NCBI RefSeq assembly: GCF_002162315.1
Contig: NZ_CP021416.1
Location: 1,066,207-1,130,206, forward strand
DNA from: Sulfurospirillum diekertiae
Lineage (GTDB): Bacteria > Campylobacterota > Campylobacteria > Campylobacterales > Sulfurospirillaceae
Direction of reading: 5' to 3'
Length of the DNA stretch: 64,000 nucleotides
A program made the translations under genes and the position numbers. The notes under the pieces are model-generated. The model made no database searches and had not been told where the DNA came from. It was given only the letters and a program-made list of their open reading frames with translations. Of this stretch, positions 4,755 to 62,745 are shown piece by piece; position 1 is the first letter of the stretch; each line of letters begins with the position of its first letter.

Positions 4755-6954
4755 ATGATGGGGCCAAACGATAATGATCATGGTGGTGAGCAAAGGATAG
4801 AGGATCCTCAAGGGTTGGCTTTTTCGATCGATCCTTTGCTTCAATGTCTTGTACTTTTTACACAACTTTACCATAAGCCTTTTAGCGCTGAAGCATTGAT
4901 GGCAGGCTTGCCTCTCTCTCCTAATGAAGAGACGCAAGGCCTGTACAATCTTAAGCAATCTAAAGGGCTTTTTGCGCGTGCAGCAAGTAGAGCAGGTTTG
5001 AAAAGCACGCTTGTCACGAAAAAGATTTCAGATATCTCTTCCTTGCAGTTGCCAATTATTTTACTACTTAAAAATTCTCAGGCGTGTATTTTACACTCTT
5101 TCAATGAGGATCATACGACCTGCAAAATTGTTTTGCCGGGCATTGAAGCTATTGAAGAGGTCATCTCCGTTGAAGCATTAACGTCAGAGTATACAGGGTT
5201 TGCTTTCCTTATTAAGAGACCTTTTGTATATGATGAGCATGACTCATTGACACTTAATGTTAAAAATAACCATTGGTTTTGGGACACCTTAAAACTTTCG
5301 ACAGGGTTTTATCGGGATGTTTTATATGCTACAGTTTTGATTAATCTTTTTGTATTGATCAGTCCTTTATTTACCATGAGTGTTTACGATAGGGTTATTC
5401 CTAACAATGCAACGGAAACGCTTTGGGTATTTGCGTCAGGTGTTTTAGTGGTTTATACATTGGATACCTTTTTGAAATTTGCTAGAGCGATTTTGTTAGA
5501 ACGTGCTGGTAAAAAAAGCGATGTTATTATGTCCTCGATTGTCTTTGAAAAAGTGCTCGACCTTCAAATGGCTTCGCATCCAAAATCAGTCGGTTCGTTT
5601 GCGAGTAACCTTAAAGACTTTGATATGATTCGCTCTTTTTTAACCAATGCAACATTGACAGTGCTTGTGGATATGCCTTTTGCGCTTCTTTTCTTATGTG
5701 TTATAGGCTATATTGGCGGTTGGATGGTCGTTGTACCTCTTCTTATGATGATTGTTATTTTAGGATACACTTTTTTTTATGCGTCATATGTTACGTGAAA
5801 GCATTGAGGAATCTCACAAAGCTGCTGCTGCTAAGAGTTCTATTTTGGTAGAGACTCTTCAAAATATTGAAACCCTTAAAACACTAGGTGTTACAGGTCA
5901 TATGCAGTGGGCATGGGAAGAAGCTACGGGTGAAATTGCTCAAAAAAGTTTGAGATCTCGTATGATATCAACTTCTATTTCAACGATTACAGGCTTTTTA
6001 GTTCAATTAACCACTGTTTTACTGGTTATTGTGGGAGTTTATCTCATCGGACAACATGATTTGTCCATGGGTGGGCTTATTGGTATTATTATTATCTCGT
6101 CGCGAACGGTTGCTCCTATGGGTCAAGCGGCATCTTTGATCGCCAATTATTCAGATGCAAAATCAGCCTATGATGTGATTAATAATATCATTTCTCAACC
6201 CTCTGAGCGTCCAAATGGCAAGAAGTTTATCACACGTCCGGCTCTACAAGGTGAGGTAGAATTTCGCGATGTTACTTTTTCATACGATGCCAATGAGCAT
6301 CAATCTTTAAAAAATATCTCCTTTAAACTTAAACCAAAGGAAAAAGTTGCCATTATCGGACGCATTGGTTCAGGTAAAAGCACGATCGCAAAACTCTTGC
6401 TTCATTTGTATGAGCCACAAAGTGGGTCTATTTTTATCGATGGTATTGATATTAATCAAATTGATCCTATTGATTTACGCAAAAATATCTCTTATGTTTC
6501 CCAAGATATTAATCTTTTTAAGGGGAGTGCTAAAGACAATATTGTATACCGTTCTTCTCGTGTTGGAGATGAGCAGATGCTACGTGCTTCCATGATCTCA
6601 GGGGCGGATGAATTTATTAAACGACATCCCTTGGGGTATGAAATGCTTATTGGAGAACGTGGTATGGGGCTTTCGGGAGGGCAGAGACAAAGTATTGGAA
6701 TCGCAAGAGCTATTTTATTTGAATCACCTATTATTCTCATGGATGAACCGACCAATGCAATGGATCAGCTCAGCGAAGCACGACTAATTGCCAATCTCAA
6801 AAGTTATATTGAGGATAAAACAGCCATTTTTGTAACACAAAAAAATACTCTTTTAGAACTTGTTGATCGTATTATTGTTATGCACGAAGGACAAATTTAT
6901 CTGGATGGTCCTAAAAATGAAGTTTTAGCGAAATTATCAGGGAAAAGTCTATGA
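4755..6954 (+). CDS. LapB-like type I secretion ABC exporter, frameshifted at T8
   Basis: The restored product is ~732 residues. The N-terminal ~150 residues resemble a C39-like domain of LapB-type exporters (DPLLQCLVLF, AGLPL). Six transmembrane helices follow, then an ATPase with Walker A (GRIGSGKST), signature LSGGQRQ and Walker B (IILMDEPTN). As written, the frame breaks at the T8 run 5771-5778: the first frame stops shortly after, and the second opens at ATGCGTCAT. Removing one T joins them through the usual linker (RESIEESHKAAAAK). It moves the giant adhesin across the inner membrane. It overlaps the HlyD gene by ATGA (6951-6954). If the break were real, secretion of the adhesin would be lost. 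Confidence 0.85.
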
Positions 6955-50464: not shown

Positions 50465-50636
50465 TCTTCGTTGATCTGCTTCATTAATCTTACCATGTAA
50501 GCATTTTTTGGCTTGCTTAGCGTTACAATCAAAGCTACTCTCATTAAGGGGCTTTGCATGAGATTATATGATGAATGTCAAGGGGTAAAGGGTGTTTTTT
50601 TGAAAGATTGTGTATTTTTTAATGTTTGAAGTGGAA
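50465..50636. other. flank between chromosomal gene and prophage-like element
   Basis: No independent gene recognised. It holds the possible 5' extension and minus-strand promoter of the 97-residue gene. The left edge of the mobile element must lie here, but no direct repeat shared with the right flank (60704-60906) was found by eye. Confidence 0.4.
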
Positions 50637-50654
50637 AGAGGCGTTTAAGCCTCT
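50637..50654 (-). terminator. terminator at the end of the element's last operon
   Basis: AGAGGC-GTTTAA-GCCTCT hairpin at the stop of the 74-residue gene, T-rich on the minus strand. Confidence 0.65.
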
Positions 50655-50877
50655 AACCTTGTTTTTGAGCGAATTGAGAGATAAGCATATCGAGCTTAGC
50701 ATCAATTCTAACGATCATTTCGTGTTTTTCTTTTGCTTCGTTTTGTTTTTCCCACAAGTTTTTAACATCGAACTCTAAACGTTTTACTCGTTCTCTAAGA
50801 GTTGCGATTATTGCTACAACGATAACGAGCTGACCAATTAAAGTCAGCCCAAACGAAAACCACTCTTGAAAAGTCAT
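50653..50877 (-). CDS. small membrane protein with coiled coil (holin- or spanin-like)
   Basis: 74 residues: one N-terminal helix (FSFGLTLIGQLVIVVAIIATL) followed by a charged coiled coil (RERVKRLEFDVKNLWEKQ). Proteins of this design are common as phage holin-like or lysis accessory products, but the family is not identifiable by eye. It overlaps the upstream 111-residue gene by 1 nt. Last gene of the element. Confidence 0.6.
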   Translation of the reverse strand: MTFQEWFSFGLTLIGQLVIVVAIIATLRERVKRLEFDVKNLWEKQNEAKEKHEMIVRIDAKLDMLISQFAQKQG

Positions 50878-51212
50878 TACGCTACACTTCTCATGCTGAT
50901 AATTGAGATGTTATCTGCTTTGACACCATTGAAAGTAAGACCAGCAAGAACAGCGTAAATATCATCTTCGCTTTTGCCTGATTTAACCGCCATTGAAAGA
51001 TAAGCTTTTAAACCCGCAGTGTTTGAGATCACAACGTTTACAAGATTGTAACTCGTTGGAGTATCTGTACCAGTTTTTGAAGTCTCAGCATATCCAACAT
51101 ATTCACCATCAAGAAAAGAAGCACAAAAGCCACTCGCAACAGTGTCATCACAAGGAAGATTAAACGAACTTGTTTTCGCACCAAGTTTATTTTTAATTAA
51201 TGTTTTTGCCAT
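50877..51212 (-). CDS. hypothetical phage protein, 111 residues
   Basis: A beta/alpha-looking sequence with three cysteines (LPCDD, GFCASF) and a Gly/Ser-rich centre. No family recognised. It starts just after the 117-residue gene with AGAGG upstream and belongs to the short operon 50653-51568. It may be a minor structural protein; this is inference from position. Confidence 0.55.
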   Translation of the reverse strand: MAKTLIKNKLGAKTSSFNLPCDDTVASGFCASFLDGEYVGYAETSKTGTDTPTSYNLVNVVISNTAGLKAYLSMAVKSGKSEDDIYAVLAGLTFNGVKADNISIISMRSVA

Positions 51213-51214
51213 GA

Positions 51215-51568
51215 TTACGCCTCTTTCTTATCATAGAATAAGTTTGAATACTCACATTTCGTTAAAGAGTCAAAACTCTCATCAAATTGTCCGATAACAG
51301 CCGTTTGAATTTCAGCGAAAGATTTTGTAGGTTTAACGTGAGGAATAGACACGCTAGCACTTTTTCTTTGACCGCTTAAATATTTTTTGCCTACACTAAA
51401 CTTTTTAGCGTTAAGAACTGATGGATTTGCAGATGTGCCACCCTCAAATTTTAACTCATAAAAAGTCAACTCACCCTCCAGGATTGAACCCAGAGCAGTC
51501 ATATCCGCCACACTACCTGAAGCCGAAACAGTATTGACGTTTCTTCCGCCAATTTTTTGTTTAATCAT
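51215..51568 (-). CDS. hypothetical phage protein, 117 residues
   Basis: Starts MIKQKIGGRNVN at 51568 with AAAGGT upstream; a longer frame to 51601 is possible. The sequence is rich in Ser, Gly and beta-type residues (GELTFYELKFEGG, KSASVSIPHVKP). No family recognised. It is the first gene of the operon controlled by the minus-strand promoter at 51631-51642. Confidence 0.55.
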   Translation of the reverse strand: MIKQKIGGRNVNTVSASGSVADMTALGSILEGELTFYELKFEGGTSANPSVLNAKKFSVGKKYLSGQRKSASVSIPHVKPTKSFAEIQTAVIGQFDESFDSLTKCEYSNLFYDKKEA

Positions 51569-51630
51569 TGGTTGACCTTTGCGTTTGATTTTGTTTTGCA
51601 AAACATGGGAAGAAGTTTAAAAGTTTTTTT

Positions 51631-51699
51631 CAAATGTCAATATAGGTGCTTCAAAACAACGAAAAGAAGAGGATTGACGATAAGTGGTATTGACATTTC
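51631..51699. promoter_or_regulatory. divergent promoter pair sharing TATTGACATTT
   Basis: TATTGACATTTG on the minus strand (51631-51642) faces the 117-residue gene. TATTGACATTTC on the plus strand (51688-51699) faces the 86-residue gene. Both contain TTGACA. A third copy precedes the 255-residue gene at 54383-54393. These are likely -35 elements or a common operator. Confidence 0.55.
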
Positions 51700-51751
51700 A
51701 TTTTTAAAAATATCATTCAAATCAAATTTAAGATCAAAAAAAGGGGAAAAA

Positions 51752-52012
51752 ATGGCAGTATCTGCAACAGATTGTCAAACGTTTTTAAAAAGTAGTTTTG
51801 GATTAAAAAATGTCACGAGTACAACATTAAGTGAGTTACGATGTCTTACATGTGGAAAAATAGCTTATCAATCAGGGAGCTACGTTTATTGTAAAAGCAA
51901 TATAACGGCACACAGAAAAACAAACCTTGACTACATGAAGGAAATAACAAAAAACAAAGCTGATTTAATCAAAGCTTTAGAAAATTATACATTCATTGAT
52001 AAAGCAATATAG
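51752..52012 (+). CDS. small cysteine-rich protein, the only plus-strand gene of the element
   Basis: 86 residues from the ATG at 51752, with AGGGG upstream. Residues ~30-47 contain Cys-x2-Cys and a later Cys (RCLTCGKIAYQSGSYVYC), suggestive of a small zinc-binding site. The C-terminus is helical and Lys-rich. Divergent position opposite the structural genes and a shared promoter region suggest a regulator. No family recognised. Confidence 0.55.
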   Translation: MAVSATDCQTFLKSSFGLKNVTSTTLSELRCLTCGKIAYQSGSYVYCKSNITAHRKTNLDYMKEITKNKADLIKALENYTFIDKAI

Positions 52013-52355
52013 AAGAAAGGGAGCTCACGCCCCATCGCTTAGTCACTTAACCATTGTTGAGATAGAAGAGCAAAGAGCGGGCTTTTAGGGTGGAGTTTGT
52101 GAAATTTTATGTATTTTAGGGAGTGTTTGGCGTTCGAATCTGCCACTCAGTTTAGACGTGTGTTTTGGCGCAAAGCGCACTTTTTGGTCGGGGCTATCAT
52201 TAACCAAAAGTGGGACATAGTCCCATTCTTGGTTAATGCCCCTTATACCCTAGCGGGTGGCGGGAGCTTTATTTTTAAAGCTTTAACTTTGTTAAGTTTG
52301 GATTCTGCGTTTGACAAAGAGAAAGAGAGGCGTGAGCCTACATGTAGGCTAATCT
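52013..52355. other. structured noncoding region of the element
   Basis: 343 nt without a believable gene. It contains GCGCAAAGCGC (near 52168), a long compound hairpin (52190-52242), ACCC-TAGC-GGGT (near 52247) and a terminator palindrome (52335-52350). The density of foldable segments resembles the intergenic region of single-stranded DNA phages, where origins and packaging signals lie. No nick site for Rep could be assigned. Confidence 0.6.
52190..52242. other. 20-bp compound hairpin, candidate packaging signal or origin
   Basis: GGGGC pairs with GCCCC (52190-52194/52238-52242), ATTAACCAA with TTGGTTAAT (52199-52207/52229-52237) and TGGGAC with GTCCCA (52211-52216/52220-52225). A 4-nt bulge and a 3x3 internal loop separate the parts. 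It is far more stable than anything else in the element. Confidence 0.6.
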
Positions 52356-52357
52356 CT
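52324..52357 (-). terminator. terminator after the 118-residue gene
   Basis: A perfect palindrome AGCCTACATGTAGGCT (52335-52350) with outer AGAGA/TCTCT pairing. It begins at the stop codon, and the minus strand is T-rich beyond it. Confidence 0.65.
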
Positions 52358-52712
52358 AAGACCTTTTGAACAATCCAGTCACAATACTTGTTACATTAAA
52401 CCCGCCTACCTCTAAATGGTTACGGCATGAAAGAGCTATATCACCCTCATTTTTATTTAACTTGACATTATTAAGCACGATTTGGTGACTCATATTTGCA
52501 TTCGTTTTAATAATGCCTTTGAATACAGCCCAGTAACCGAAATCATCTATTGGAGATTGAGTATCGTCAGAGTATTCTATCTTTAAAATCTCACTCACTT
52601 TCATGGTCGTTAACTCATTAAAAAAAGCTAGACAATCGGCAACGCTTTTAGCTTCAACTTGATTAGTAATCGTTCTACGTCCTTGCTTTAATTGCACTCT
52701 ATAAATTGGCAT
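52356..52712 (-). CDS. hypothetical phage protein, 118 residues
   Basis: Begins MPIYRVQLKQGRRTITNQVEA, with a mixed alpha/beta pattern. No family recognised. It lies 2 nt after the stop of the disrupted 280-residue gene and ends at a terminator. It is the last gene of the operon that starts with the 255-residue protein. Confidence 0.6.
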   Translation of the reverse strand: MPIYRVQLKQGRRTITNQVEAKSVADCLAFFNELTTMKVSEILKIEYSDDTQSPIDDFGYWAVFKGIIKTNANMSHQIVLNNVKLNKNEGDIALSCRNHLEVGGFNVTSIVTGLFKRS

Positions 52713-52714
52713 TT

Positions 52715-53565
52715 TTACGCTCCCAACATTGTTGATATTCTTTTTACATAATCTTTAGATAATTCACAATCTTTTAAACCATTTTCATTAATATCAACAC
52801 CTAAAAAATAACAAATTAGTTTTAGATTTTCGTTTGGTTCATTTTGAGCAGACAAACCAAAAAATTGAACAAGACGTTGTAAATATTCTTTTATTGCATC
52901 ACAATCGCTCAAAGTTGTATTTGTATCAACACCAAGAAGTTGACAAATGATTTTTTAAAATTTTTGAAATTGATCAGTCACAGCAGAGCCACCAAGAGTC
53001 CTTACAATTGGAGCAAAATCAGGATAACAACAAAATTGAGGGGAAACAAGCAATCGAAGAACAAAGAGCTCATTTTTCCAAGGATAAGAAGATTCAGGAG
53101 TACAAAGAACAATATAAGGAGTACGAAGAGTTAAAAATATTTACACAATAATAATTAAAAGCATCCTCAAAAAGTATCAAATGAAGCAACAAAAAGAACC
53201 ACCATAACCACCAGAATAAAGATCATATTTAAAAAGAACGTAAAAAACTGGACTCATAAGAAATATTATAACTATCCAAACTAACAACATGTTCAATATA
53301 AACATCACCAAAGACAGAAGAATAAAAAGTAAGAAGATTGAATAGGAAAATAAGAAAAATAAACATAAGGATAATCACCAAAAAAACCACTAAACAAAGC
53401 AATTTTAGTATCACTGCTCCTCTGATAAATTTTCATTCCTTCATAAAAAAAATAAGAATCAGGAAGAAACATACTATTAAAAACATCAATACCAATTAAA
53501 CGATCAGCATTATCAGATGAATATAAAAACTCATAATCTTGAATATTAAATTTTTGTAAAGACAT
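52715..53565 (-). pseudogene. hidden ~280-residue phage protein gene with multiple +1 homopolymer breaks
   Basis: Starts MSLQKFNIQDYEFLYSS at 53565. The frame is lost at 53324-53328 and regained by removing one base there. Four further single-base removals, in T5-type runs near 53231, 53191, 53169 and 53134, carry it on. Removing one base from each of three adjacent runs near 52951-52965 brings it to the intact C-terminus at 52715. The length then becomes exactly divisible (843 nt, 280 residues). The C-terminal region shows an internal duplication: NLKIICQLLGVDTN and NLKLICYFLGVDIN, each followed by a similar helix. This supports the reconstruction. The first ~190 residues look beta-rich and aromatic. 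It could be a capsid or vertex protein; that is inference. It may be truly decayed or misread. Confidence 0.6.
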
Positions 53566-53574
53566 TACATATCC

Positions 53575-54342
53575 TTACTTATTATGAACATATGCAAGAG
53601 CATTAATTAAATTCATGAACTCTTCACTTAATCCAGTTAATTTACCGTTAGAGTCTTTTGTGTACATAAAGTCGGCTGCTTTATTAAGATCATTGACGTC
53701 AAGAGCTGAAGCAGTATCACGACCTAATATTTTCTTCATAAGCATTTCATCTTGAGGCGTAAATGATTTTGTGAAAAGTTTGAACATTAATGTCTCATTG
53801 TAACGTGATGCCATATTGTTTCCTAAACCCATGTGGAGATTTTCACGGTTATAGAGGGAGTTTTTGGTATCAGTCACAGCAGATAAAGTATCAAAAGAAG
53901 ATGAATTATGATTAAATTGTGAAGTCGTTTGAGCACTAGCTTTAAAACCCTGATGATTAACGATTATCTGACCAGTGATTAAATTCTCTTGATTTGAACT
54001 TTGAAAAAAGCCCATTTTACGAAAAAGTTTAACACCTTTTAAATTTCTATATTTTGCCAAACCTTTTTTTATAGGATTAAGCAAAAGAAGAGGAATTAAA
54101 ATTTCAACTTTTTCAAAAATCTTTGCAATAAGAGCTTCCTGAGCACGAACAGCATACATGATAACACCAAATACAAGAACATTCATAGAGCTTTCAATAG
54201 CTTCTTTAATTATCGGATTATCAATATCTTTAGTAAATGCTTGAATAATCTTTTTAGACTCATCGTATCCAACCATCATAATGATTGTTTCAAAAAATTC
54301 CTCAGCAGAATTTTTCCCAACTTGTTGAACAGTTCCCGACAT
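53575..54342 (-). CDS. phage protein with central membrane segments, 255 residues
   Basis: Helical N-terminus, then two hydrophobic segments (about 48-66 and 78-90: MNVLVFGVIMYAV, ILIPLLLLNPI), then a hydrophilic Asn/Ser-rich C-terminal half. No family recognised. A membrane-associated structural or assembly protein is plausible. It is the first gene after the minus-strand promoter at 54383-54393. Confidence 0.6.
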   Translation of the reverse strand: MSGTVQQVGKNSAEEFFETIIMMVGYDESKKIIQAFTKDIDNPIIKEAIESSMNVLVFGVIMYAVRAQEALIAKIFEKVEILIPLLLLNPIKKGLAKYRNLKGVKLFRKMGFFQSSNQENLITGQIIVNHQGFKASAQTTSQFNHNSSSFDTLSAVTDTKNSLYNRENLHMGLGNNMASRYNETLMFKLFTKSFTPQDEMLMKKILGRDTASALDVNDLNKAADFMYTKDSNGKLTGLSEEFMNLINALAYVHNK

Positions 54343-54382
54343 TTAACACCTCGTTTTTTCGAGAATGTTAAAAGTATTTTTA

Positions 54383-54393
54383 AAATGTCAATA
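54383..54393 (-). promoter_or_regulatory. promoter element TATTGACATTT ahead of the 255-residue gene
   Basis: The same 11-bp word as at 51632-51642 and 51688-51698. TTGACA lies ~45 nt upstream of the ATG at 54342, with an AT-rich stretch between. Confidence 0.5.
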
Positions 54394-54455
54394 GAGGGGA
54401 GAGAAAAGAACGAGAGAGACGAATGTTAAAAAAAGATTAATGATAATTTAAGAAT

Positions 54456-54486
54456 AGTAAACAGCCTAAAAAAAGGCTATTTACTT
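54456..54486 (-). terminator. terminator after the Rep-M15-structural operon
   Basis: AGTAAATAGCC / GGCTGTTTACT on the minus strand (one G-T pair) with an 8-nt loop. It overlaps the stop of the small membrane protein gene. The downstream T-run is weak. Confidence 0.55.
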
Positions 54487-54706
54487 AAAAGATTTATCTT
54501 TTGAAAATTGGTTGATATCTTCTTTACCACCCATCATATGATATTGTTCAATCATAATATCAGAAGAAGCGTGAGGAGGAGTATAAAAATAATACCTAAT
54601 ACCAATATAAGAAAAAATAACAATTAAAAACATAAAAAAAATAATAAATAAATTTTTCTTTTAATTCTTTTTTTTCTTTATTAGATGAAAATTGTCCTTT
54701 TATCAT
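54481..54706 (-). CDS. small single-helix phage membrane protein, frameshifted at T8
   Basis: The ATG at 54706 overlaps the preceding stop as ATGA. The frame reads MIKGQFSSNKEKKELKEKFIYYFF and then leaves. Removing one base from the A8 run 54634-54641 continues it as MFLIVIFSYIGIRYYFYTPP to the stop at 54481. This gives 74 residues with one clean membrane helix. The downstream part alone (54481-54633) could also be made as 50 residues from an internal ATG. No family recognised. Confidence 0.55.
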
Positions 54707-55770
54707 GTTGGCCTACCCCCCATTCTAGTAATAAATTCAGACATAATATCAACACTACTATCATAACCAAAAATAGAGGATATATCAATAGGCGAAAATA
54801 AGTCTATATCATAATCATCTAATTCAAGATTTTTTTCATCTGTTTGATTAATAGCTGTAACTGCATTTTTAACCAAACTAGCCTCACGAGGAGACATATC
54901 AAAAAGAACATTCTCGTCAATATCTTTGACCTGAGTTGGCGTTTTAGCGTAAACCTTAGCCTCAACCTCAAATGATCTATGACTAGCTTCAATTTCAAGA
55001 GGTGTAAAACCAACAACACTATCAGACTCTAAAACCTGATTAGAAACTGGTGTATTCTTAAACTCATACGCTTTTAACATTTGAAGATTCTTTCTAGCCT
55101 CAACTTCAGCAGGACTCATTTTAGAATCACCGACCTGCATAGTGTTATCCTCTTCTTTTTTCTTTGCATTATCTGCAAGCTCTTTAGTAAGCGTGTACGT
55201 TTTATCCATAAAACCCGTAGCAATATCCATGTATTTTAATAACCCATACATGTAATCATTAAAAACATCGAACTTCGAGCCAAAAGTAGAGGTTAATGTA
55301 CCAACAGATTCAACTAAGCTTTTTGTATTTTGTTTTAGAACAGCAGGCAAAGTCTCACCTACAACAGGAGGCGTAACAGCTTCTTTTTGACGGTCTAAAT
55401 CTTCCTGCAACTTAATCTTATTTTCCAAAGTATACTTAAGATTTTCGACTTCTTGTTGTTTCTTTTTAATCTCTTCTTTTTCCTCCTCAGGAGCAGTAGA
55501 AAGATAAGAGAGCAATAACTCAGAAGCCTGACCGAAAAGCTGAATAGCAAGTTGATATTTAGCAGGAACCTTTGCCATAGCCAAAGCACTTTCAAGAGAA
55601 GTCATAGCATATTGCTTACTAGAGGGGAGCGAAATAGGTTTAAAATTTGAATTATTTACGGGCGTAGAAGAACCCGAAGGAACTTCAACGCTAGGAATAG
55701 TAGAAGGAGTAGACGGCTGAGTATCAACAACAGGCTTAACCGAACCACCTACACCAGACCAACCACCCAT
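54703..55770 (-). CDS. phage structural-type protein with coiled coil, 355 residues
   Basis: A Gly/Pro/Ser/Thr-rich N-terminus (GGWSGVGGSVKP and PSTPSTIPS), then a helical region with a strong coiled coil (EEEKEEIKKKQQEVENLK), then a long mixed C-terminal region. It resembles spike, internal scaffold or minor capsid proteins in general composition only. It overlaps the 200-residue gene by 1 nt upstream and the small membrane gene by 4 nt downstream. Confidence 0.55.
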   Translation of the reverse strand: MGGWSGVGGSVKPVVDTQPSTPSTIPSVEVPSGSSTPVNNSNFKPISLPSSKQYAMTSLESALAMAKVPAKYQLAIQLFGQASELLLSYLSTAPEEEKEEIKKKQQEVENLKYTLENKIKLQEDLDRQKEAVTPPVVGETLPAVLKQNTKSLVESVGTLTSTFGSKFDVFNDYMYGLLKYMDIATGFMDKTYTLTKELADNAKKKEEDNTMQVGDSKMSPAEVEARKNLQMLKAYEFKNTPVSNQVLESDSVVGFTPLEIEASHRSFEVEAKVYAKTPTQVKDIDENVLFDMSPREASLVKNAVTAINQTDEKNLELDDYDIDLFSPIDISSIFGYDSSVDIMSEFITRMGGRPT

Positions 55771-56372
55771 TATGAATCCTTTAACGTAAGCAAGAAATGA
55801 GGAGCTAAAAGAATTTTACCATTTTGAGAAAGCTTATAAATAACAGAACTACCCTGAAGATCAACAGCGGGATAAGACCATAATTGCTGAGAAGCCTCAA
55901 TAGTATATTCACCTTGACGAGCCGAAACAGTTACAACCGAACCATTAGGATAAGCACCAAAATTACCGTCAAGATCAGGAACAGAAAAAACACCCTCAGA
56001 AGAACCAACACCGTTATCAGAAGAACCAACATCATCTGGAACATACGATGGAAATTTTTTAAAAGCCTCAGTTTCTATACTAAAACAACAGCCAGACAAC
56101 TGAGAACCTGCAACAAAAACAAAATAATTTTGAGTTGCATCCAAATATAAACGAAATGTGCTATCTAAAACAGTATGAGTTTGATTGTATGAACCATAAA
56201 CAACAAGAGGAACACAATAAGCATTAAGAAGAGTATAGCTAGGAACTTCCTCAACAGTAATGAGTAAATACAATTCACCAGTAACCAAATCGACAGTATT
56301 ACCATCAATTAAAGTAACAGAATAATCATTTGCAGGAACGTGTAATCTAGCAACAGCATTATCGTAACTCAT
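55770..56372 (-). CDS. hypothetical phage protein, beta-rich, 200 residues
   Basis: A predicted all-beta sequence with many aromatic, Val and Thr residues (YSVTLIDGNTVDLVTGELYLLI). A Gly/Ser/Asp linker (DDVGSSDNGVGSSEG) divides it into two domains. A candidate for a capsid, spike or receptor-binding protein. No family recognised. It is packed between the 109- and 355-residue genes in the late-gene order. Confidence 0.55.
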   Translation of the reverse strand: MSYDNAVARLHVPANDYSVTLIDGNTVDLVTGELYLLITVEEVPSYTLLNAYCVPLVVYGSYNQTHTVLDSTFRLYLDATQNYFVFVAGSQLSGCCFSIETEAFKKFPSYVPDDVGSSDNGVGSSEGVFSVPDLDGNFGAYPNGSVVTVSARQGEYTIEASQQLWSYPAVDLQGSSVIYKLSQNGKILLAPHFLLTLKDS

Positions 56373-56381
56373 AAACTCTCC

Positions 56382-56711
56382 TTACTTCATAATAGCGACT
56401 GTTTTATCAAACAGCACATCAAGGGATTGAATAGAAACAAAAACGAGTTTTAAATTATCGTCATTCACTTCTTGTTTAAGCTCTTTTTTTTGCAGATAAT
56501 CTGCAAGAATTTCAGAACAACGAGTAAGACCAATAACGTCATTTTTTAAAACTTCATTATTTTGAAGTGTAGTATCTTGATTAAGTGTTTCCACTACCTG
56601 AGAGGCAACAATAAGACCGCCACCAATAGCGGGATTAAAAACCGTAGCAACTTGACCAACACCTTTTAAAACACTAGACCAATCATATTTTTGTAAATTT
56701 TGTAAATTCAT
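56382..56711 (-). CDS. hypothetical phage protein, 109 residues
   Basis: An amphipathic/hydrophobic N-terminal stretch (SSVLKGVGQVATVFNPAIGGGLIVASQVV) is followed by a helical charged C-terminus. The Gly-rich hydrophobic stretch could insert in a membrane. No family recognised. Spacing of ~10 nt to both neighbours indicates the same operon. Confidence 0.55.
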   Translation of the reverse strand: MNLQNLQKYDWSSVLKGVGQVATVFNPAIGGGLIVASQVVETLNQDTTLQNNEVLKNDVIGLTRCSEILADYLQKKELKQEVNDDNLKLVFVSIQSLDVLFDKTVAIMK

Positions 56712-56721
56712 TTTTTTTTCC

Positions 56722-57093
56722 TTATTTCATAATTTTTAAAATAGGATTTGGTTTAGTCAAATCCATATCAACGTGAATAAACGTATCGTAAAGCAAAACA
56801 CGTTTAAAACCTACTTTTAACAGAGCCGAAACAATGTTAAATCGAACGCTATCGCTAAGAGTGGAAATATCCACAGCCAAACCTTTTGTATGTGCACTAT
56901 CCTCAACACCTCCCACTTCTTTATTATGTTTTTCACAACGACAACCACAATTAATTTTAAAAGAAACATTTGCCGATTGACGAGCAGTATCCAACAAAAT
57001 AACAAGATCATCATTGATATTATTAAGACCACAACCACACTTACATGTAAACTCTTCTTTTTTAAAGTGTTTTATTTGCCACCAATTAACCAT
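56722..57093 (-). CDS. M15-family peptidase (endolysin-type)
   Basis: 123 residues matching Peptidase_M15_3. The motif FKKEEFTCKCGCG is followed by His68 and Asp75 (SAHTKGLAVD), and by His107 and Asp109 (FIHVDMD), the zinc-ligand set of the family. It would cleave peptidoglycan cross-peptides for release or entry. No signal peptide is seen. It follows Rep by 11 nt. Confidence 0.85.
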   Translation of the reverse strand: MVNWWQIKHFKKEEFTCKCGCGLNNINDDLVILLDTARQSANVSFKINCGCRCEKHNKEVGGVEDSAHTKGLAVDISTLSDSVRFNIVSALLKVGFKRVLLYDTFIHVDMDLTKPNPILKIMK

Positions 57094-57104
57094 TTTTTAA
57101 ATCC

Positions 57105-58493
57105 TCAACTTATAAATTTTGAAAAATCTTTAATAAACCAATCATGAACGCCCACACCCTCATCATGTAAAGCGTTATAAGTTTGATCAATGGTATCAAA
57201 CACACGATTCACAAAGTAATGTTTATTTTGTTGCATTTTTTCATCGTCCAAATCTTTGACCTCAAGACGATTGAAACGATCTAAACGTTTGCTGTAAACG
57301 TCCTCTAAAACAGTGCTATCGTGTTTCTTTTCGGTGTACTCTTTGATCTTGTTCATAGCATCTTCAATAGTGCAGGGGCGAAGATCACCATAATGTGAAA
57401 GAGACGTGGAAAGGAAAGCTTTAAACGCATTATGAACATAGATAAAATCTGTAGTAAAAGGTTTAACGAAAGTCTCGATAGTATCAGTTTTAAAATGGCC
57501 GTTAAAAGTTTCAATTACTTTCCAAAGTGGATGCACTTCACTCCTTAAAAATCGTTGTCTTACAGCGTCAAAAGTAAGTATTTTTTGATCTCCATTTTTA
57601 AGCGTTTTAAAACCTAGCATTATCTCAGTAGTGTCTTGATCGCTTAAATCTCTGAGACTAAAATCATCTAAACAACGCGCCCAAAGATTGTTTAAGTTAT
57701 TGAGTATGATCTCAAAACCGTCCAAAACCTGACCATCAATAACCATATTTTTAAGCTTCTCACGCCTGATCTGAAACTCTATTCTAAAAACTTCTTTTGT
57801 TTCGTCATAATCTTTATTTGTGCGCCATAAACCCTCAATAAAAGACTTATTAGGAAACTTCTTTATCTCTTTAGTTTTATTGTAAACACGCATGAGGTAA
57901 TCACCGCCACCTTTCATAAAACCTTGAAAGGAACGGCCACTATAATAAAAACTATCACAGCCTATCTCATCATCATAGTAACGATTATTGCGTGTACGTG
58001 TTTTTGTACGGTGAAAATCTAAAATCGTAAAGTTATAGCCTTGAACATCACATTGTAAATGTATTTCGCTGATCTTGATTGTGTAGTGTGAGATGATATG
58101 ATCTCTTAAAAACTTGTTTATGTTTTGAACAGCTTTAATATAACCATTTCTTTGGAGGAACGAAGCACGAAATTCAACTTTACAAAATGGGTTAGGGTCA
58201 ATAGTGGTAAGCATTTTTTTAAGGTGTATAGTTACGTCAGCGTTTTTAATAGATACACTAAATCCTCGCACCGTAGCGGGCATAATTTGGAAGAACGCCC
58301 CGCCGAATGAATGCTGATATTGACTAAAGCTTTTATTCTCGTTTTTTTGGCTCTGAGCTTGCATTTTAGTAGACAAAAGACTATCGAGTAAAAAATTATA
58401 GCCTCGAATATCATCACCGCTAAGAAGTTGAGATGGATAAAGGTGATATTTGAGTGTGTCGATGTTTTGCCAAAGTTTAACCATATTCTGCAT
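57105..58493 (-). CDS. rolling-circle replication initiator, Rep_trans/phage CRI-like
   Basis: 462 residues. Features of the replication-initiation factor family are seen at residues ~140-152 (KISEIHLQCDVQG, the metal/strand motif region) and ~200-210 (LMRVYNKTKEI, the usual R-x-Y-x-K motif), followed by VFRIEFQIRREKLK. Long C-terminal helices follow. It would nick a double-stranded origin and start rolling-circle replication. This supports a single-stranded or rolling-circle phage or plasmid-like element. First gene of the late operon. Confidence 0.72.
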   Translation of the reverse strand: MQNMVKLWQNIDTLKYHLYPSQLLSGDDIRGYNFLLDSLLSTKMQAQSQKNENKSFSQYQHSFGGAFFQIMPATVRGFSVSIKNADVTIHLKKMLTTIDPNPFCKVEFRASFLQRNGYIKAVQNINKFLRDHIISHYTIKISEIHLQCDVQGYNFTILDFHRTKTRTRNNRYYDDEIGCDSFYYSGRSFQGFMKGGGDYLMRVYNKTKEIKKFPNKSFIEGLWRTNKDYDETKEVFRIEFQIRREKLKNMVIDGQVLDGFEIILNNLNNLWARCLDDFSLRDLSDQDTTEIMLGFKTLKNGDQKILTFDAVRQRFLRSEVHPLWKVIETFNGHFKTDTIETFVKPFTTDFIYVHNAFKAFLSTSLSHYGDLRPCTIEDAMNKIKEYTEKKHDSTVLEDVYSKRLDRFNRLEVKDLDDEKMQQNKHYFVNRVFDTIDQTYNALHDEGVGVHDWFIKDFSKFIS

Positions 58494-58603
58494 TTAAAAC
58501 CTTTTTGAAATTTGTCGCACTAAGCCCCCCTTGATAAACCATTGTGGAGGCAAAGTTTTTTTTCGCTTTTTGAAGCTCTACGAATAGAAATTCAAGAAAC
58601 GAA

Positions 58604-58623
58604 AAGAGGGCGTTAACCCTCTT
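58604..58623 (-). terminator. terminator between the early and Rep operons
   Basis: AAGAGGG-CGTTAA-CCCTCTT, a perfect 7-bp stem, with TTTTCG following on the minus strand. It lies right after the stop of the 162-residue gene. Confidence 0.8.
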
Positions 58624-58626
58624 AAA

Positions 58627-59115
58627 CTAACTTACTTTTTCCCATGATTGCCAAATAGGTGAAAGCACATCTTGTCCGAAGTCTTTAACAAAACCTAGTG
58701 AGCCTTTGAACATGTAAGTGCTATTTAGCTCTAATTCGTTAAACATTGTTTCTGATACATTTTGAACGAGCGTACCGCCTTTAAAAATAAGAGTGATTTT
58801 GTAGCGGTTAGGGTAAAAAGTAGGGTCACCCGAAGCGTCAAGAATAGGCGCACCCGTTGTTTTATCCGTTCTTTGTTTACCGTTTTGGACTTCACGTTGT
58901 GAAATTTGAGCGGAGAGAGTAACTTTATTTGCGTTTACTTTCTCATTATAAAGCGCCATCATTCTGTGGAACTCTTCCATAGTCATTGAACCGTCACCAA
59001 CTTTTGGGGACATGTCAGCAATACCAACGTTATTGGCAACCTCACCGTTGTTAACTGGCTCATGGATAATGACTGGAATTTCTTTACCGTCTACTGTTTG
59101 TGATGTAAGTTTCAT
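58627..59115 (-). CDS. candidate single-stranded-DNA-binding (OB-like) phage protein
   Basis: 162 residues. The N-terminal ~50 residues are disordered-looking. The remainder has alternating beta strands (KVTLSAQISQ, YKITLIFKGGTLVQ, STYMFKGSLGFVKDFG), as in OB-fold proteins. Position upstream of Rep and small size match helix-destabilising proteins of filamentous and other ssDNA phages. The assignment is by pattern and position only. It overlaps the HTH gene by 4 nt. Confidence 0.45.
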   Translation of the reverse strand: MKLTSQTVDGKEIPVIIHEPVNNGEVANNVGIADMSPKVGDGSMTMEEFHRMMALYNEKVNANKVTLSAQISQREVQNGKQRTDKTTGAPILDASGDPTFYPNRYKITLIFKGGTLVQNVSETMFNELELNSTYMFKGSLGFVKDFGQDVLSPIWQSWEKVS

Positions 59116-59306
59116 GCGATTCTTTCCTTTAATTGTTTTTCTTTTAAATGTATATTTTGCATACGGCTAATAAAAGCCGACCTCGAAACGCCACTCTCTC
59201 TAATAATGTCCTCTCTAGTTATAGAGCACCCATAACCACCCCTTTTAATTAAATTTAAAACGGAAGTTAAAAGCATAAAATCCGTTTGTGAAACTTCAAA
59301 TTTCAT
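59112..59306 (-). CDS. small helix-turn-helix protein
   Basis: 64 residues with a winged-helix-like pattern (LLTSVLNLIKRGGYGCSITREDIIRESGVSRSAFISRMQ). It probably binds DNA and may regulate the early or late operon. It overlaps both neighbours by ATGA. No specific family assigned. Confidence 0.6.
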   Translation of the reverse strand: MKFEVSQTDFMLLTSVLNLIKRGGYGCSITREDIIRESGVSRSAFISRMQNIHLKEKQLKERIA

Positions 59307-59458
59307 TTAACAATCTCAACGACCCAACCAATACGATCTTCAATCGTAACGATGGGATTATTTGTATAATTACGTTTTGCACTTTTGGCAAGGTTACGAG
59401 CATCACCAAAAGCACGCCTTTGACCGATTAAAAGACCATTCACGAGAACTCTAAACAT
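59303..59458 (-). CDS. small conserved-looking phage gene, 51 residues
   Basis: The frame starts MFRVLVNGLLIGQRRAFGDA at 59458 and ends at 59303, fitting exactly between its neighbours. It overlaps the 104-residue gene by 19 nt and the HTH gene start by ATGA. The sequence is basic with a short beta start. No family recognised. Confidence 0.6.
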   Translation of the reverse strand: MFRVLVNGLLIGQRRAFGDARNLAKSAKRNYTNNPIVTIEDRIGWVVEIVK

Positions 59459-59754
59459 TGTTGCCCCTTTGGAACAAAAGAATTAAAACGCTTTACAATC
59501 TCCATTAATAGAATTTCAGCACTCTCAAAAGTGTCCTCAAAATTAAAAAGCTTATCAGAGTGATAGAGTTTAATATCTGCAATATGAACATGAGAGCCTT
59601 TCACATCAATGCCAAGAGAAGCGGAACGCTCATAATCATCATGATAAATTCGAAAAGAAAGTTTTAAAGCACTCAAATCTATTTCATTATCGTAAACCTC
59701 AAAAGGAAAAGGTTGACCTTTTTTTGGAATATTGTTAAAGACGATTTTAGGCAT
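59440..59754 (-). CDS. hypothetical early phage protein, 104 residues
   Basis: A mixed alpha/beta protein starting MPKIVFNNIPKKGQPFPFEVYD. No family recognised. It overlaps the recombinase stop by 8 nt, so the two are co-expressed. It could be an accessory factor of the recombinase or an early regulator; there is no sequence evidence for either. Confidence 0.6.
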   Translation of the reverse strand: MPKIVFNNIPKKGQPFPFEVYDNEIDLSALKLSFRIYHDDYERSASLGIDVKGSHVHIADIKLYHSDKLFNFEDTFESAEILLMEIVKRFNSFVPKGQQCLEFS

Positions 59755-60703
59755 TAATTAATCCTTGATGAAATTTGACATAAACAGCACGAAACAAATG
59801 TGACATACACGCCACTAAAGCGACCATTTTATTTTTACCACCATCAACAAGACGTGTATATTTTTCTTTAATAATTTCGTTATATTGGATAGCGGACATA
59901 GTGCAAAGATAGAGAAGCTTTCTAACTAGGGAACTACCACGCTTACTCATAGATTCTTTTTTATGAACTGACGTACCACTTTCAAATATTTTAGGAGAAA
60001 GCCCCACAAAACTTTGGAGTTGTTTAAGAGTGTAATTTTGAGATTTTAAAAAAATAGGAACAAGCTCTAAAAGGAGAGCATAACCAACGCCTTTAATCTC
60101 TTTTTTTAGCTCAATGACATGTGGGAAAAGTTCTTTCAAAACTTTCTCAGCTTCTTTCTCCAAACCTTTTTTTGTCTCTTTAATCTTAAGTTCTAAAGCA
60201 CACAAAAAAGAGTCTAATAAATCAATAGGATTTTCTTTTTGAGAATGAACAAAATTTAAAAGTTGTGTATCAAGTTTACGAAGCAGATTAATTGATGATG
60301 TATATTTGCGAAGCGTTTTATCAGATTGATTGAAAATTGTTTTAAATTCATCTTGATCTAATGTTTGAATATACTTAGCAATACCCAAACTATCAGCAAG
60401 ATCACTTTTTTTGCGTGAATTTAAGTGTTTAAGATAGTGACTCATCATGTAAGGATTAATCATTATTTGTTTGAAGTCATGAACAGTGAGAAGCTTTTGC
60501 AATACGTGCATGTAATTACTTGTTGCTTCGTAACCAAAGAAAAGCTCACTTTTTTTATAAGTCGTTTTTAAGTAGTCAAAAAATCCTAGAATAGAGCTCT
60601 CATTATTAAGAATTTGGATAGGGTCGTATTTTAAACCATCAAGAGTAATGGAAATATCCAACTTGTCTTTAGCAACATCAACACCAACAAAAACTTTACG
60701 CAT
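59747..60703 (-). CDS. IS110-family DEDD recombinase, likely integrase of the element
   Basis: 318 residues. The N-terminal RuvC-like domain has the catalytic set Asp9 (GVDVAKDKLD), Glu59 (FGYEATSNY), Asp101 and Asp104 (KKSDLADSL). The C-terminal Transposase_20 domain contains GVGYALLLELVP and SKRGSSLVRKLLYL with its conserved Ser. Members include transposases guided by a bridge RNA, and Piv/Irg-type recombinases carried by filamentous phages of Neisseria. It is the first gene of the early operon, at the outer edge of the element, with AAAGGA ahead of the start. It probably integrates the element. Confidence 0.9.
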   Translation of the reverse strand: MRKVFVGVDVAKDKLDISITLDGLKYDPIQILNNESSILGFFDYLKTTYKKSELFFGYEATSNYMHVLQKLLTVHDFKQIMINPYMMSHYLKHLNSRKKSDLADSLGIAKYIQTLDQDEFKTIFNQSDKTLRKYTSSINLLRKLDTQLLNFVHSQKENPIDLLDSFLCALELKIKETKKGLEKEAEKVLKELFPHVIELKKEIKGVGYALLLELVPIFLKSQNYTLKQLQSFVGLSPKIFESGTSVHKKESMSKRGSSLVRKLLYLCTMSAIQYNEIIKEKYTRLVDGGKNKMVALVACMSHLFRAVYVKFHQGLINA

Positions 60704-60906
60704 GGTAAATCCTTTTTTTTTGTATAATGTGTACTTCTTTATACTTGTAAACGTGATCTTGTCACTAGATTATTATTAAAAGTTAGTACACGAAAACCCT
60801 TATCTCATGGCGCAGGCTCTAAGACCTTAGCATGTACAGAGGGTTAAACGTGTATATCGTGTCGTTACCATAACATTTAATGAAATTTTAAAAAAAAGGA
60901 TTAAAG
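60704..60906 (-). ncRNA. candidate bridge-RNA / element-end region upstream of the recombinase
   Basis: 203 nt without a gene between the recombinase start and the next chromosomal gene. The core folds as TACACG (60787-60792) with CGTGTA (60849-60854), a small internal loop, and AACCCT (60795-60800) with AGGGTT (60840-60845), enclosing a 39-nt loop (60801-60839). A smaller GTGA/TCAC repeat lies near 60752-60764. In IS110-type elements, a guide RNA is encoded next to the recombinase in the terminal noncoding end. This matches in position and size; the sequence itself proves nothing more. A TATAAA box may drive the recombinase. Confidence 0.45.
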
Positions 60907-62745
60907 ATGGTTGACGAGGAGAATCTTACAAGTATGTACGATCTTGAGGCGTTTTTGCGCTCTATTCATCCGTTTCAACTGCTTTCCAAAACCGAGATTG
61001 CTAAAGCCATTGGTGCGATGAATATCGCTTACTATAAAAAAGAGACATTGCTGCTTTCTCCTTCAAAACCAGCTGAATTTTTATACATTATTATCAAAGG
61101 CGAAGTAGGGGAGTTTCATGAAGAAGAATTGCTCAAAGTGTACAGTAAATCTAACTCATTTGATGCGGATGCCCTCATTTATAACAAAAGTGAGAGCAGT
61201 TTTAAAGTTTTAGAAGAGCTTATCTGCTATGAGCTAAAAAAAGCCGATTTTCTCGCTTTACTTGATTCCAACGCAGCCTTTAAAGCCTACTTCATCCAAG
61301 ACCTTGCTAACAAAATTCAATCCGCCAAAGCCAAAGAGTACACCACGGAACTTTCAGGGTTTATGATGGCACGCGTGCAAGACAGCTATTTGCATGTGCC
61401 AACGATTGTGGAAAAAGAGTGCTCTATCATCGAGGCACTTCATCAAATGGAGGCAACAAAAAGCAGTTGTATCATCGTTCGCAATGGCGAGGGATATGAG
61501 TATGGTATTGTGACTGACAGCATTGTGCGCCGTCATGTACTTTTTGAGGAGTATGATAAACATGCCGCCATTGGTCCTATTGCGCTTCACCCCATTATCA
61601 CCATCGAAGCGGATGACTACCTTTTTAACGCACTTCTTTCGTTTACGAAACACTCTATCAAACGTCTTATCGTCACGCGCGATGGTGAGATTATCGGCAT
61701 TTTGGAACAATTGGATCTGCTCAGTTATTTTGCCAATCACACCTATCTCGTTGCTGTTCAAATCCGAAAAGCGACTACCGTCGAAGAGCTCAAACAAGCC
61801 AGTTTTGATCTGATGAGCATCGTGAAAAAGTTACATGTCAAAGGAACCAAGGTTGATTATATTGCCAAGCTGATTTCGGAGATTAACGAGAAGATTTATG
61901 AAAAACTCTATGGCATGATCGTTCCACCTGAGCTTGCCCAAAAAGCGTGTTTGGTGGTGATGGGCAGTGAAGGGCGCAAGGAGCAGCTTCTTAAAACTGA
62001 CCAAGACAATGCGTTGATCATTGACGATAATGTCAATGAAAGCCTTTATATTCCCTACATGCGGCGTTTTACTGAAACACTCATCGATTTTGGTTTCCCT
62101 CGTTGCGAGGGTAACATTATGGTTTCCAATCCGTATTGGTGTAAACATTGGAGTGCTTACCAAAAAGAGATCATGCGTTGGTTTGATACGCCAAGCATGG
62201 AAGATGTGATGAATCTTGCGATCTTTTTCGATGCAATTCCTGTGGCAGGCGATGCGTCGATGTTACATAAACTTAAAAATGAAATCTTTGAACATGTTGA
62301 AGAGCAGAGTCCTTTTTTAGCCAATTTTGCAAAAGCGGCAACGGCATTTGAAACGCCCATTGGTATGTTTACCAATCTGATCGCTCAAAATCATAAAATT
62401 GATGTCAAAAAAGGGGGCATTTTCCCCATCGTTCAAGGTGTGCGCGCTCTCGCATTGGAGCATAAGATCGAAGTGACCGACACGCTTACTCGCATAAAGA
62501 AGCTTGCAAAGATGGACGTTATAGACAATGATTTTGCAGGCGCACTCATCGAAGCGTTTGATACTCTTTTGAATTTGCGTTTAAAAGAGCGTTTGAGCTT
62601 GGGTGAAGACAAGGGGCTGGATAACTTCGTGAACATCGAAAATCTCAACCAATTGGAGCTAGAGCTTCTCAAAGACAGCTTCAAAATCGTCAATAAATTT
62701 AAGAAATTTTTGACGTACCATTTTAAACTTTCCATGGTGAGCTAG
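60907..62745 (+). CDS. cNMP-binding / CBS / DUF294 putative nucleotidyltransferase
   Basis: 612 residues. A cyclic-nucleotide-binding-like domain (about 15-130, YIIIKGEVGEF), two CBS domains (about 165-275) and a DUF294 nucleotidyltransferase domain with GSEGRKEQLLKTDQDNAL are followed by the DUF294 C-terminal helical domain. Such proteins often accompany DnaQ-like exonucleases and transporter genes. They probably act as signalling uridylyl- or nucleotidyltransferases; the target is unknown. The next gene starts 1 nt after its stop. Confidence 0.9.
   Translation: MVDEENLTSMYDLEAFLRSIHPFQLLSKTEIAKAIGAMNIAYYKKETLLLSPSKPAEFLYIIIKGEVGEFHEEELLKVYSKSNSFDADALIYNKSESSFKVLEELICYELKKADFLALLDSNAAFKAYFIQDLANKIQSAKAKEYTTELSGFMMARVQDSYLHVPTIVEKECSIIEALHQMEATKSSCIIVRNGEGYEYGIVTDSIVRRHVLFEEYDKHAAIGPIALHPIITIEADDYLFNALLSFTKHSIKRLIVTRDGEIIGILEQLDLLSYFANHTYLVAVQIRKATTVEELKQASFDLMSIVKKLHVKGTKVDYIAKLISEINEKIYEKLYGMIVPPELAQKACLVVMGSEGRKEQLLKTDQDNALIIDDNVNESLYIPYMRRFTETLIDFGFPRCEGNIMVSNPYWCKHWSAYQKEIMRWFDTPSMEDVMNLAIFFDAIPVAGDASMLHKLKNEIFEHVEEQSPFLANFAKAATAFETPIGMFTNLIAQNHKIDVKKGGIFPIVQGVRALALEHKIEVTDTLTRIKKLAKMDVIDNDFAGALIEAFDTLLNLRLKERLSLGEDKGLDNFVNIENLNQLELELLKDSFKIVNKFKKFLTYHFKLSMVS

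What the first reader, a model, noticed from the sequence alone, without database searches (positions are those of the whole stretch)
50637..60900. A ~10-kb tailless prophage-like element that matches no family I can name
Seen: a Rep_trans-like initiator, M15 peptidase, OB-like protein, beta-rich and coiled-coil proteins, several membrane proteins, an IS110-type recombinase and a structured noncoding region, all compactly packed. Not seen: any Walker A ATPase, tail, portal, terminase or large capsid gene. Known inoviruses need a Zot-type ATPase and microviruses a ~500-residue VP1, so both fit poorly. The set (rolling-circle Rep, lytic enzyme, membrane proteins, no ATPase) recalls small membrane-containing icosahedral ssDNA phages such as the finnlakevirus FLiP. 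That link is inference.
Basis: partly seen in the sequence, partly recalled or inferred. Interest (0 to 1): 0.85.

Follow-up and report, generated by a model that had tools for sequence, protein, structure and literature searches.

The report
RNA-guided tailless prophage family
A compact virus-like element in a Sulfurospirillum-type bacterium belongs to an apparently undescribed family of small tailless prophages that seem to choose where to insert in the chromosome with a short guide RNA, so that changing the guide changes the insertion site.

Summary
The element is real and exactly bounded: window 50563-60930 plus a 2-bp core, 10,370 bp; the uninterrupted site was found in all six relatives aligned. 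It belongs to a family with a conserved order (IS110 recombinase, Rep, lysis genes, g355, g255, then three related ~115-residue proteins); 23 of 397 Campylobacterota genomes hold g255 (two weakly). No ATPase motif occurs in 29 elements, apart from one string inside a recombinase. Rep and recombinase resemble those of inovirus Zuza8; no other family matches Zuza8 or finnlakevirus FLiP. So 'tailless prophage of no known family' holds, but the FLiP link does not. Lysis genes argue against filamentous extrusion. The capsid is unidentified.

The main new result is how it integrates. The non-coding left end encodes a predicted bridge RNA. In 16 elements its target loop matches the element's own left site at least as well as any other site (0 of 200,000 permutations as good); donor guides match the element ends; joining the ends builds a promoter-like sequence. 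Two copies in one chromosome, 99.97% identical over 11.9 kb, carry different recombinase-guide modules and sit at different sites. I read it as a temperate rolling-circle phage with programmable lysogeny. RNA, virions and recombination remain unproven.

The parts
50563..60930 (-). whole element (10,368 bp plus one 2-bp core = 10,370 bp)
   Evidence: conserved ends and uninterrupted site in relatives
60931..60932 (.). AG core at the left (recombinase) end
50561..50562 (.). AG core at the right end
60704..60930 (-). non-coding left end holding the predicted bridge RNA (core of it about 60725-60860)
60829..60837 (-). left target guide (8 of 10 letters of the own target, core included)
60804..60810 (-). 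right target guide (complementary to the own target over a run of 6)
60767..60777 (-). left donor guide, like the right end of the element
   Evidence: read by eye
60744..60751 (-). right donor guide, complementary to the left end of the element
   Evidence: read by eye
59747..60703 (-). IS110-type DEDD recombinase, 318 aa
   Evidence: relative of Zuza8 transposase
59440..59754 (-). g104, unknown; found only in elements of this genus
59303..59458 (-). g51, unknown
59112..59306 (-). g64, small conserved protein, possibly DNA-binding (inference)
58627..59115 (-). 162-aa protein just upstream of rep, perhaps ssDNA-binding (inference from position)
57105..58493 (-). Rep, rolling-circle initiator of inovirus type, 462 aa
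56722..57093 (-). M15 peptidase (endolysin)
56382..56711 (-). g109, conserved in many members, holin candidate (inference)
55770..56372 (-). g200, variable N-terminus, spike or receptor-binding candidate (inference)
54703..55770 (-). g355, coiled-coil-like protein with conserved C-terminus, virion or DNA-delivery candidate (inference)
53575..54342 (-). g255, the best family marker, role unknown (DNA-delivery candidate, inference)
52715..53565 (-). region of a 247-298-aa gene (spike candidate, inference) that is interrupted in this copy, intact in relatives
52356..52712 (-). g118, small coat-protein candidate (inference)
52013..52355 (.). non-coding region with a strong hairpin, candidate replication or packaging origin (inference)
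51557..52012 (+). opposite-strand ORF, cargo or regulator (86-88 aa in relatives)
51215..51568 (-). g117, small coat-protein candidate, paralogue of g111 (role inferred)
50877..51212 (-). g111, small coat-protein candidate (role inferred)
50653..50877 (-). g74, membrane/coiled-coil protein by eye, spanin or holin candidate (inference)

Best explanation
It is a prophage of a temperate, tailless, rolling-circle phage family of Campylobacterota. Rep initiates replication of the excised circle. Small paralogous proteins (g118, g117, g111) with g255, g355, g200 and the interrupted ~290-aa protein probably form and equip the virion. Endolysin, in some members with a spanin-like pair, releases it by lysis. 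Integration is done by the element's IS110 recombinase with a bridge RNA from its left end: the donor loop pairs with the joined element ends, the target loop with the chromosomal site, and recombination occurs at a CT core. Circularisation brings a -35 box (right end) next to a -10 box (left end) and so switches on the bridge RNA and recombinase in the circle; integration separates the two boxes again. Changing or swapping the guide module retargets the phage. Shown by sequence: exact ends, empty sites, guide-target matching, gene conservation, absence of ATPase, paralogy of the small proteins. Inferred: RNA expression, recombination, virion, lysis, promoter activity, roles of the structural genes.
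For: Uninterrupted sites: window site in 6 of 6 relatives aligned, L027 site in 4 of 4, L034 site in 4 of 4, L029 site in 1 of 4 (these are part of the 23, 16, 22 and 18 other genomes with any flank match). Guides: 16 elements, own left-target run sum 146 against 80.5 (sd 5.6) for permuted pairs, 0 of 200,000 as high; right side (15 elements) 103 against 68.4 (sd 4.2), 0 of 200,000; own left target best or joint best in 16 of 16, strictly best in 14. Two-domain consensus folds with guides in the internal loops, 8 of 24 and 6 of 32 pairs with two-sided changes. Joined ends: promoter score of 10 or more of 12 in 16 of 17 elements against 22 of 5000 random windows; in 14 the best pair spans the joint as TTGAC[A/T]-17-TA[A/T]GAT. 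Gene order in 11 further elements, Rep missing in one, L168; g255 in 23 of 397 genomes. Endolysins of three Pfam families, two of them M15, and weak Rz-type spanin matches in L043. Rep and recombinase related to the filamentous phage Zuza8. Module swap: L034 and L035, 99.97% over 11,881 bp but 79.5% over about 1.1 kb at the left end.
Against: No capsid identified; both models weak and without fold matches at E<=0.001. The window's own guide fits poorly: 8 of 10 left, run of 6 right, and 34 of 3000 random CT sites do as well (L048: 37 of 3000). Right guides are joint best in only 10 of 15. The left-junction core reads TT, not CT, in 5 of 16 (L039, L043, L159, L161, L165). The window RNA alone does not fold better than shuffles (z -1.1, 32 of 200 as good), and Rfam has no match. 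The L029 empty site in G000 has TT where the occupied one has CT, and three of four relatives tried do not span that joint. One integrated left end (L039) also scores 10 as a promoter, and in L033-L035 the best promoter pair lies inside the right end, not across the joint. Related elements are not independent. Virion, excision and RNA were not observed.
Confidence: 0.77

Rival explanations
1. It is a phage satellite or capsid-hijacking island: it replicates and integrates by itself but is packaged by a helper phage.
For: No capsid gene recognised; 10-13 kb size; one sister element (L048) lies inside an 84-kb contig between tailed-phage genes.
Against: No Pfam or PHROG match of packaging or capsid-size kind among the window proteins; own lysis genes and three conserved paralogous small proteins. 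A helper was not searched for.
Confidence: 0.13
2. It is a filamentous phage (inovirus) that uses a non-Zot export motor.
For: Rep and IS110 recombinase are inovirus-type; Neisseria Nf and Thermus Zuza8-like inoviruses are thought to integrate by an IS110 recombinase (PMC11437467, passages).
Against: No ATPase in 29 elements nor Zot in the own genome; no match to Zuza8 structural proteins; endolysins and spanin-like genes are out of place in a non-lytic phage.
Confidence: 0.06
3. It is a FLiP-like membrane-containing phage with a double jelly-roll capsid too divergent to detect.
For: Similar functional set; PhiCjT23, a temperate relative of FLiP, has a capsid protein of only 239 aa made of 126- and 113-residue sandwiches (PMC9719478, passages), about the size of g117 plus g111 side by side.
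Against: No profile match to any FLiP protein; predicted pattern of two beta-beta-alpha-beta units, not a jelly-roll, at low confidence.
Confidence: 0.06
4. It is an integrative plasmid or transposon of rolling-circle type that carries phage-derived genes but makes no particle.
For: Rep, recombinase and bridge RNA suffice for such a life; no particle proven.
Against: Lysis genes and several further genes kept in order across several bacterial families; no relaxase or partition gene among the element's proteins scanned.
Confidence: 0.09
5. The guide-target matches are an artefact: the left end copies or resembles the flank by chance or by target duplication.
For: The window's own match is modest.
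Against: The guides lie some 40 to 150 bases inside the element, on both sides of the loop, covary over 16 elements, and the targets exist intact in relatives without the element.
Confidence: 0.04

Closest known systems
IS110-family insertion sequences with bridge RNA (IS621; PMC11208160, passages)
   Same: DEDD recombinase, RNA from the non-coding left end, two-loop RNA, left and right guides for target and donor, CT core
   Different: the mobile unit here is a 9.7-13.2 kb prophage-like element with replication and lysis genes, not a minimal IS; core TT at the left junction in 5 of 16
Paulinoviridae inoviruses (Thermus phage Zuza8) and Neisseria Nf phages
   Same: IS110 recombinase next to an inovirus-type Rep; recombinase thought to integrate the phage
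   Different: Zuza8 has a Walker A assembly protein and filamentous coat genes; ours has neither and carries endolysin; a bridge RNA of these inoviruses was not examined here
Finnlakeviridae (FLiP) and PhiCjT23
   Same: small tailless genome, Rep, lytic enzyme; no packaging ATPase (recalled); PhiCjT23 is temperate
   Different: no detectable protein kinship with FLiP; PhiCjT23-like prophages are thought to use XerCD/dif sites (PMC9719478, passages)
Microviridae
   Same: small tailless lytic phages, temperate members known (recalled)
   Different: no ~500-aa VP1 and no PHROG match to microvirus proteins

Membership tests
IS110 / bridge-RNA recombinases | DEDD_Tnp_IS110 plus Transposase_20 domains | tested here: met
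   both over the curated cut-off
IS110 / bridge-RNA recombinases | structured RNA in the non-coding left end with two internal loops | tested here: met
   consensus folds of 8 and 4 sequences; the single window RNA is not better than shuffles, so structure only, not expression
IS110 / bridge-RNA recombinases | target guides match the own insertion site | tested here: met
   0 of 200,000 permutations on either side; window copy itself weak
IS110 / bridge-RNA recombinases | donor guides match the element ends | tested here: met
   read by eye; no statistic made, since ends and guides are nearly constant
IS110 / bridge-RNA recombinases | RNA-dependent recombination | not testable with these tools
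   needs an experiment
Inoviridae / Tubulavirales | Zot/pI morphogenesis ATPase | tested here: not met
Inoviridae / Tubulavirales | inovirus-type rolling-circle Rep | tested here: met
   PHROG 1159 in 9 of 13 family members
Inoviridae / Tubulavirales | short helical major coat protein and other structural genes | tested here: not met
   no match of 16 families to Zuza8 coat, attachment or assembly proteins; other inoviruses not compared
[quoted passage not shown]
   no sequence or profile match; no confident structure
Finnlakeviridae | homologous Rep | tested here: not met
   HMM E 0.093 to FLiP gp15, none by hhalign
Finnlakeviridae | internal lipid membrane | not testable with these tools
   needs virions
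Microviridae | ~500-aa VP1 | tested here: not met
   largest element ORFs are Rep (462) and g355 (355); no PHROG match
Caudoviricetes | terminase, portal, HK97 capsid | tested here: not met
   no such match among 20 window proteins

The most novel reading that the evidence does not exclude
A virus lineage with a new kind of virion, built from three related ~115-residue proteins, that establishes lysogeny by RNA-guided recombination; its guide-recombinase cassette is exchanged between otherwise identical prophages, so that one phage can settle at many chromosomal sites.
Probability: 0.4. Interest if true: 0.93.

Novelty: new variant of a known kind. Interest (0 to 1): 0.8.

Why it matters
Phage integrases normally recognise their site through the protein, so a phage is tied to one or few sites. 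Here the site appears to be written in an RNA, and natural pairs of prophages show that it changes or is swapped while the phage stays the same. That would make lysogeny programmable, give natural large-cargo (over 10 kb) examples for bridge-RNA editing, and offer several recombinase-guide-site sets to test at once. The family is nearly absent from the phage collections searched and has no recognisable capsid, so it may also point to an unseen class of small lytic phages in Campylobacterota.

Tried and rejected
FLiP membership: rejected by HMM and profile comparison. Inovirus with a missed ATPase: rejected. Capsid by structure: job 1 (g111 with g117, 6 sequences) gave pLDDT 62; job 2 (g118, 3 sequences) 51; fold searches, g111 against viral models and g118 against the PDB, gave no match at E<=0.001. 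PDB sequence searches with families A1-A8 found nothing at E<=0.001; the best, E 0.0077 for g355, is a coiled-coil hit. Further scans of viral contigs with g255, g118 and g111 alignments brought back only the one contig of L048 or nothing. The first viral-contig hits L002-L006 hold none of our families; the L003 match lies in a terminase gene. L046 and L047, hits of g355, proved unrelated loci and were dropped. G175 and G344, the two weak g255 hits, were not followed. Left out of the guide test: L045 (left target cut by the contig end), L160 (same guide as L159), L162 (same left end as L048 by eye), L036, L038, L042, L166-L169 (ends not found by the motif); by eye L036 and L042 show left-guide matches, not counted. 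L028 entered for the left side only. One search was cut in output; the ATPase check was repeated. One search failed by a script error after one sequence; the RNA was aligned and folded with other tools instead. Papers: searches (open-access library only, no preprints; where more papers matched than were listed I saw the top of the list only) listed no paper whose title or opening abstract describes a bridge RNA in a prophage or this family. I read passages of PMC9719478, PMC11437467 and PMC11208160, and listings with the start of abstracts of the rest. Rz, holin, spike, pilot protein, the mutual kinship of M15 families, the FLiP lack of an ATPase and general inovirus and microvirus biology are recalled.
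Full report
What is there. The window lies in a single-contig 2.88-Mb genome in which the element's DNA occurs once. The genus is Sulfurospirillum by its relatives. The element is compact, mostly on the minus strand, with G+C of 0.29-0.38 against mostly 0.39-0.44 in the flanks. No tRNA and no Rfam family is found in the window.

Gene families. Recognisable: IS110 recombinase, Rep of inovirus type, M15 peptidase. The other window proteins have no match over a Pfam cut-off and no PHROG match better than E 0.0067; the best sub-cut-off hits are coiled-coil-like (FlxA, E 3e-4, for g74; MIT, E 0.0014, for g355). The 355-aa protein found 17 of 398 genomes of the order; two of these loci (L046, L047) were chance hits. 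Iterated profiles then showed a common order in the other loci, several of them partial contigs: recombinase, g64, 162-aa protein, Rep, lysis genes, g109, g200, g355, g255, variable ~290-aa gene, g118, cargo often on the opposite strand, g117, g111, g74. Eleven further elements from other genera have recombinase, g355, g255, g118, g117 and g111 in this order; Rep and the 162-aa protein are there in 10 of 11, not in L168. The g255 profile finds 23 of 397 Campylobacterota genomes, two of them weakly. g255 and g118 have no match in 50,697 phage records; Rep has one, the filamentous Thermus phage Zuza8. IMG/VR gave one complete relative, inside an 84-kb contig between tailed-phage genes (portal and terminase large subunit on one side).

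No ATPase. Across 29 elements, 994 frames of 60 aa or more hold one [AG]x4GK[ST] string, inside a recombinase. Of the five inovirus-like contigs found with the same Rep profile (L051-L055), all have a Walker A protein, and four of these five proteins match Zot-type PHROGs (L054's matches other phage families only). The own genome has no Zot.

Lysis. Endolysins are of three Pfam families: M15_3 here, M15_4 in L045 and L048, phage lysozyme in L038 and in the partial palindromic contig L050. L043 adds two overlapping genes with weak matches to Rz-like spanins (E 0.0019 and 0.013). Replacement of one endolysin by another is usual for lytic phages and odd for non-lytic ones (established knowledge, recalled).

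Coat candidates. g117 and g111 are paralogues (profile comparison 96%). g118 aligns with both over nearly its whole length (39-65% by direction and pair; 81% against the joint profile), while eight control families give 0.4% or less. So each element carries three related ~115-residue proteins; their columns are better conserved than those of g200 and the ~290-aa gene. The models suggest a repeated beta-beta-alpha-beta unit but are weak. I take these as the likeliest coat proteins; that is inference.

Not FLiP. All 16 family HMMs and 17 profile comparisons against all FLiP proteins gave nothing significant, while Zuza8 recombinase and Rep stood out as a positive control. PhiCjT23's capsid protein has two sandwiches of 126 and 113 residues (PMC9719478, passages seen); that g117 and g111 have nearly these lengths side by side is noted, not claimed as kinship.

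Ends. Comparison of copies gave sharp ends: left TGTAAGAT (or TGTATGAT), right CATATAATCT (or CTTAAAATCT), CT core in recombinase orientation. Sizes with found ends run from 9,661 to 13,236 bp. Joining the two flanks gives exactly the site found uninterrupted in relatives: 6 of 6 given for the window site, 4 of 4 for L027, 4 of 4 for L034, 1 of 4 for L029, the other three aligning only up to the left flank. In the window the site is codon 2 of a gene with cNMP-binding, CBS and DUF294 domains; the element's end now supplies a new start (MVDEENLTS before MYDLEAF). L029 shows the same kind of fused start on a response-regulator gene.

Bridge RNA. The roughly 150-250 non-coding bases between left end and recombinase contain, in variable internal loops, a stretch equal to the left target and one complementary to the right target of the same element, as in IS621 (rules from PMC11208160, passages). 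Test on an 85-base stretch holding the target loop, 16 elements with located ends: own left run 146 against 80.5 (sd 5.6), own right run 103 against 68.4 (sd 4.2; 15 elements); 0 of 200,000 permutations reached either; without the core letters 126 against 97.4 (sd 3.2), also 0. An earlier test with 11 and 10 elements agreed; one of its four measures (right-side matches) was reached by 1 of 100,000 permutations, the other three by none. Related pairs (L027/L029, L032/L033) are not independent. The window copy itself fits less well than most (8 of 10; run of 6). Donor guides agree with the ends in both groups, by eye. Consensus folds give two stem-loop domains with the guides in their internal loops; the window RNA alone folds no better than shuffles.

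Switch. Joining right and left ends gives 10 or 11 of 12 promoter consensus letters in 16 of 17 elements and 9 in L033; random 46-mers reach 10 in 22 of 5000; integrated left ends score 6-10. In 14 of 17 the best pair is TTGAC[A/T]-17-TA[A/T]GAT across the joint; in L033-L035 a pair inside the right end scores as well or better. Thus the circle, rather than the prophage, should drive the RNA and recombinase (inference).

Retargeting. In one genome two copies (L034, L035) are 99.97% identical over 11,881 bp, yet about 1.1 kb at the left end (RNA and recombinase) is 79.5% identical and they sit at different sites; in S. diekertiae two copies 96.9% identical have different guides, each fitting its own site. 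Either the module is swapped as a cassette, or the bodies were homogenised by recombination; both leave a movable guide module.

Verdict.

Noticed in passing
L036 with L037 (G114 contig 15): Two copies in tandem, 9,067 bp apart; the second keeps only the last 56 residues of the recombinase, recalling tandem prophage arrays of filamentous phages.
   Followed up: partly
L048 3326-14061: A complete sister element sits inside an 84-kb contig next to a portal and a terminase gene, i.e. a phage-like element within a tailed phage or prophage.
   Followed up: partly
window 52013-52355: Non-coding region with a strong hairpin (0 of 100 shuffles fold as well); the arms differ in L032-L035 but by eye stay complementary. 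Candidate rolling-circle or packaging origin.
   Followed up: partly
window 52715-53565: The ~290-aa variable gene is interrupted in this copy and intact in seven relatives, so this prophage may be defective.
   Followed up: partly
L027 11394-12200; by eye also L029, L032, L034, L042: Some elements carry a C5 cytosine methyltransferase gene (PF00145 tested in L027), a possible anti-restriction cargo.
   Followed up: no
L050: A 9.8-kb IMG/VR contig looks like a head-to-head palindrome of the rep half of a related element with a phage lysozyme; assembly artefact or replication form.
   Followed up: no
L031 (Zuza8) 6499-6773: The IS110 transposase of this inovirus also has an upstream non-coding stretch; a bridge RNA there was not tested.
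   Followed up: no
L029 7100-7288: A repeat of about 189 bp beside the L029 insertion occurs many times in three genomes of the genus.
   Followed up: no
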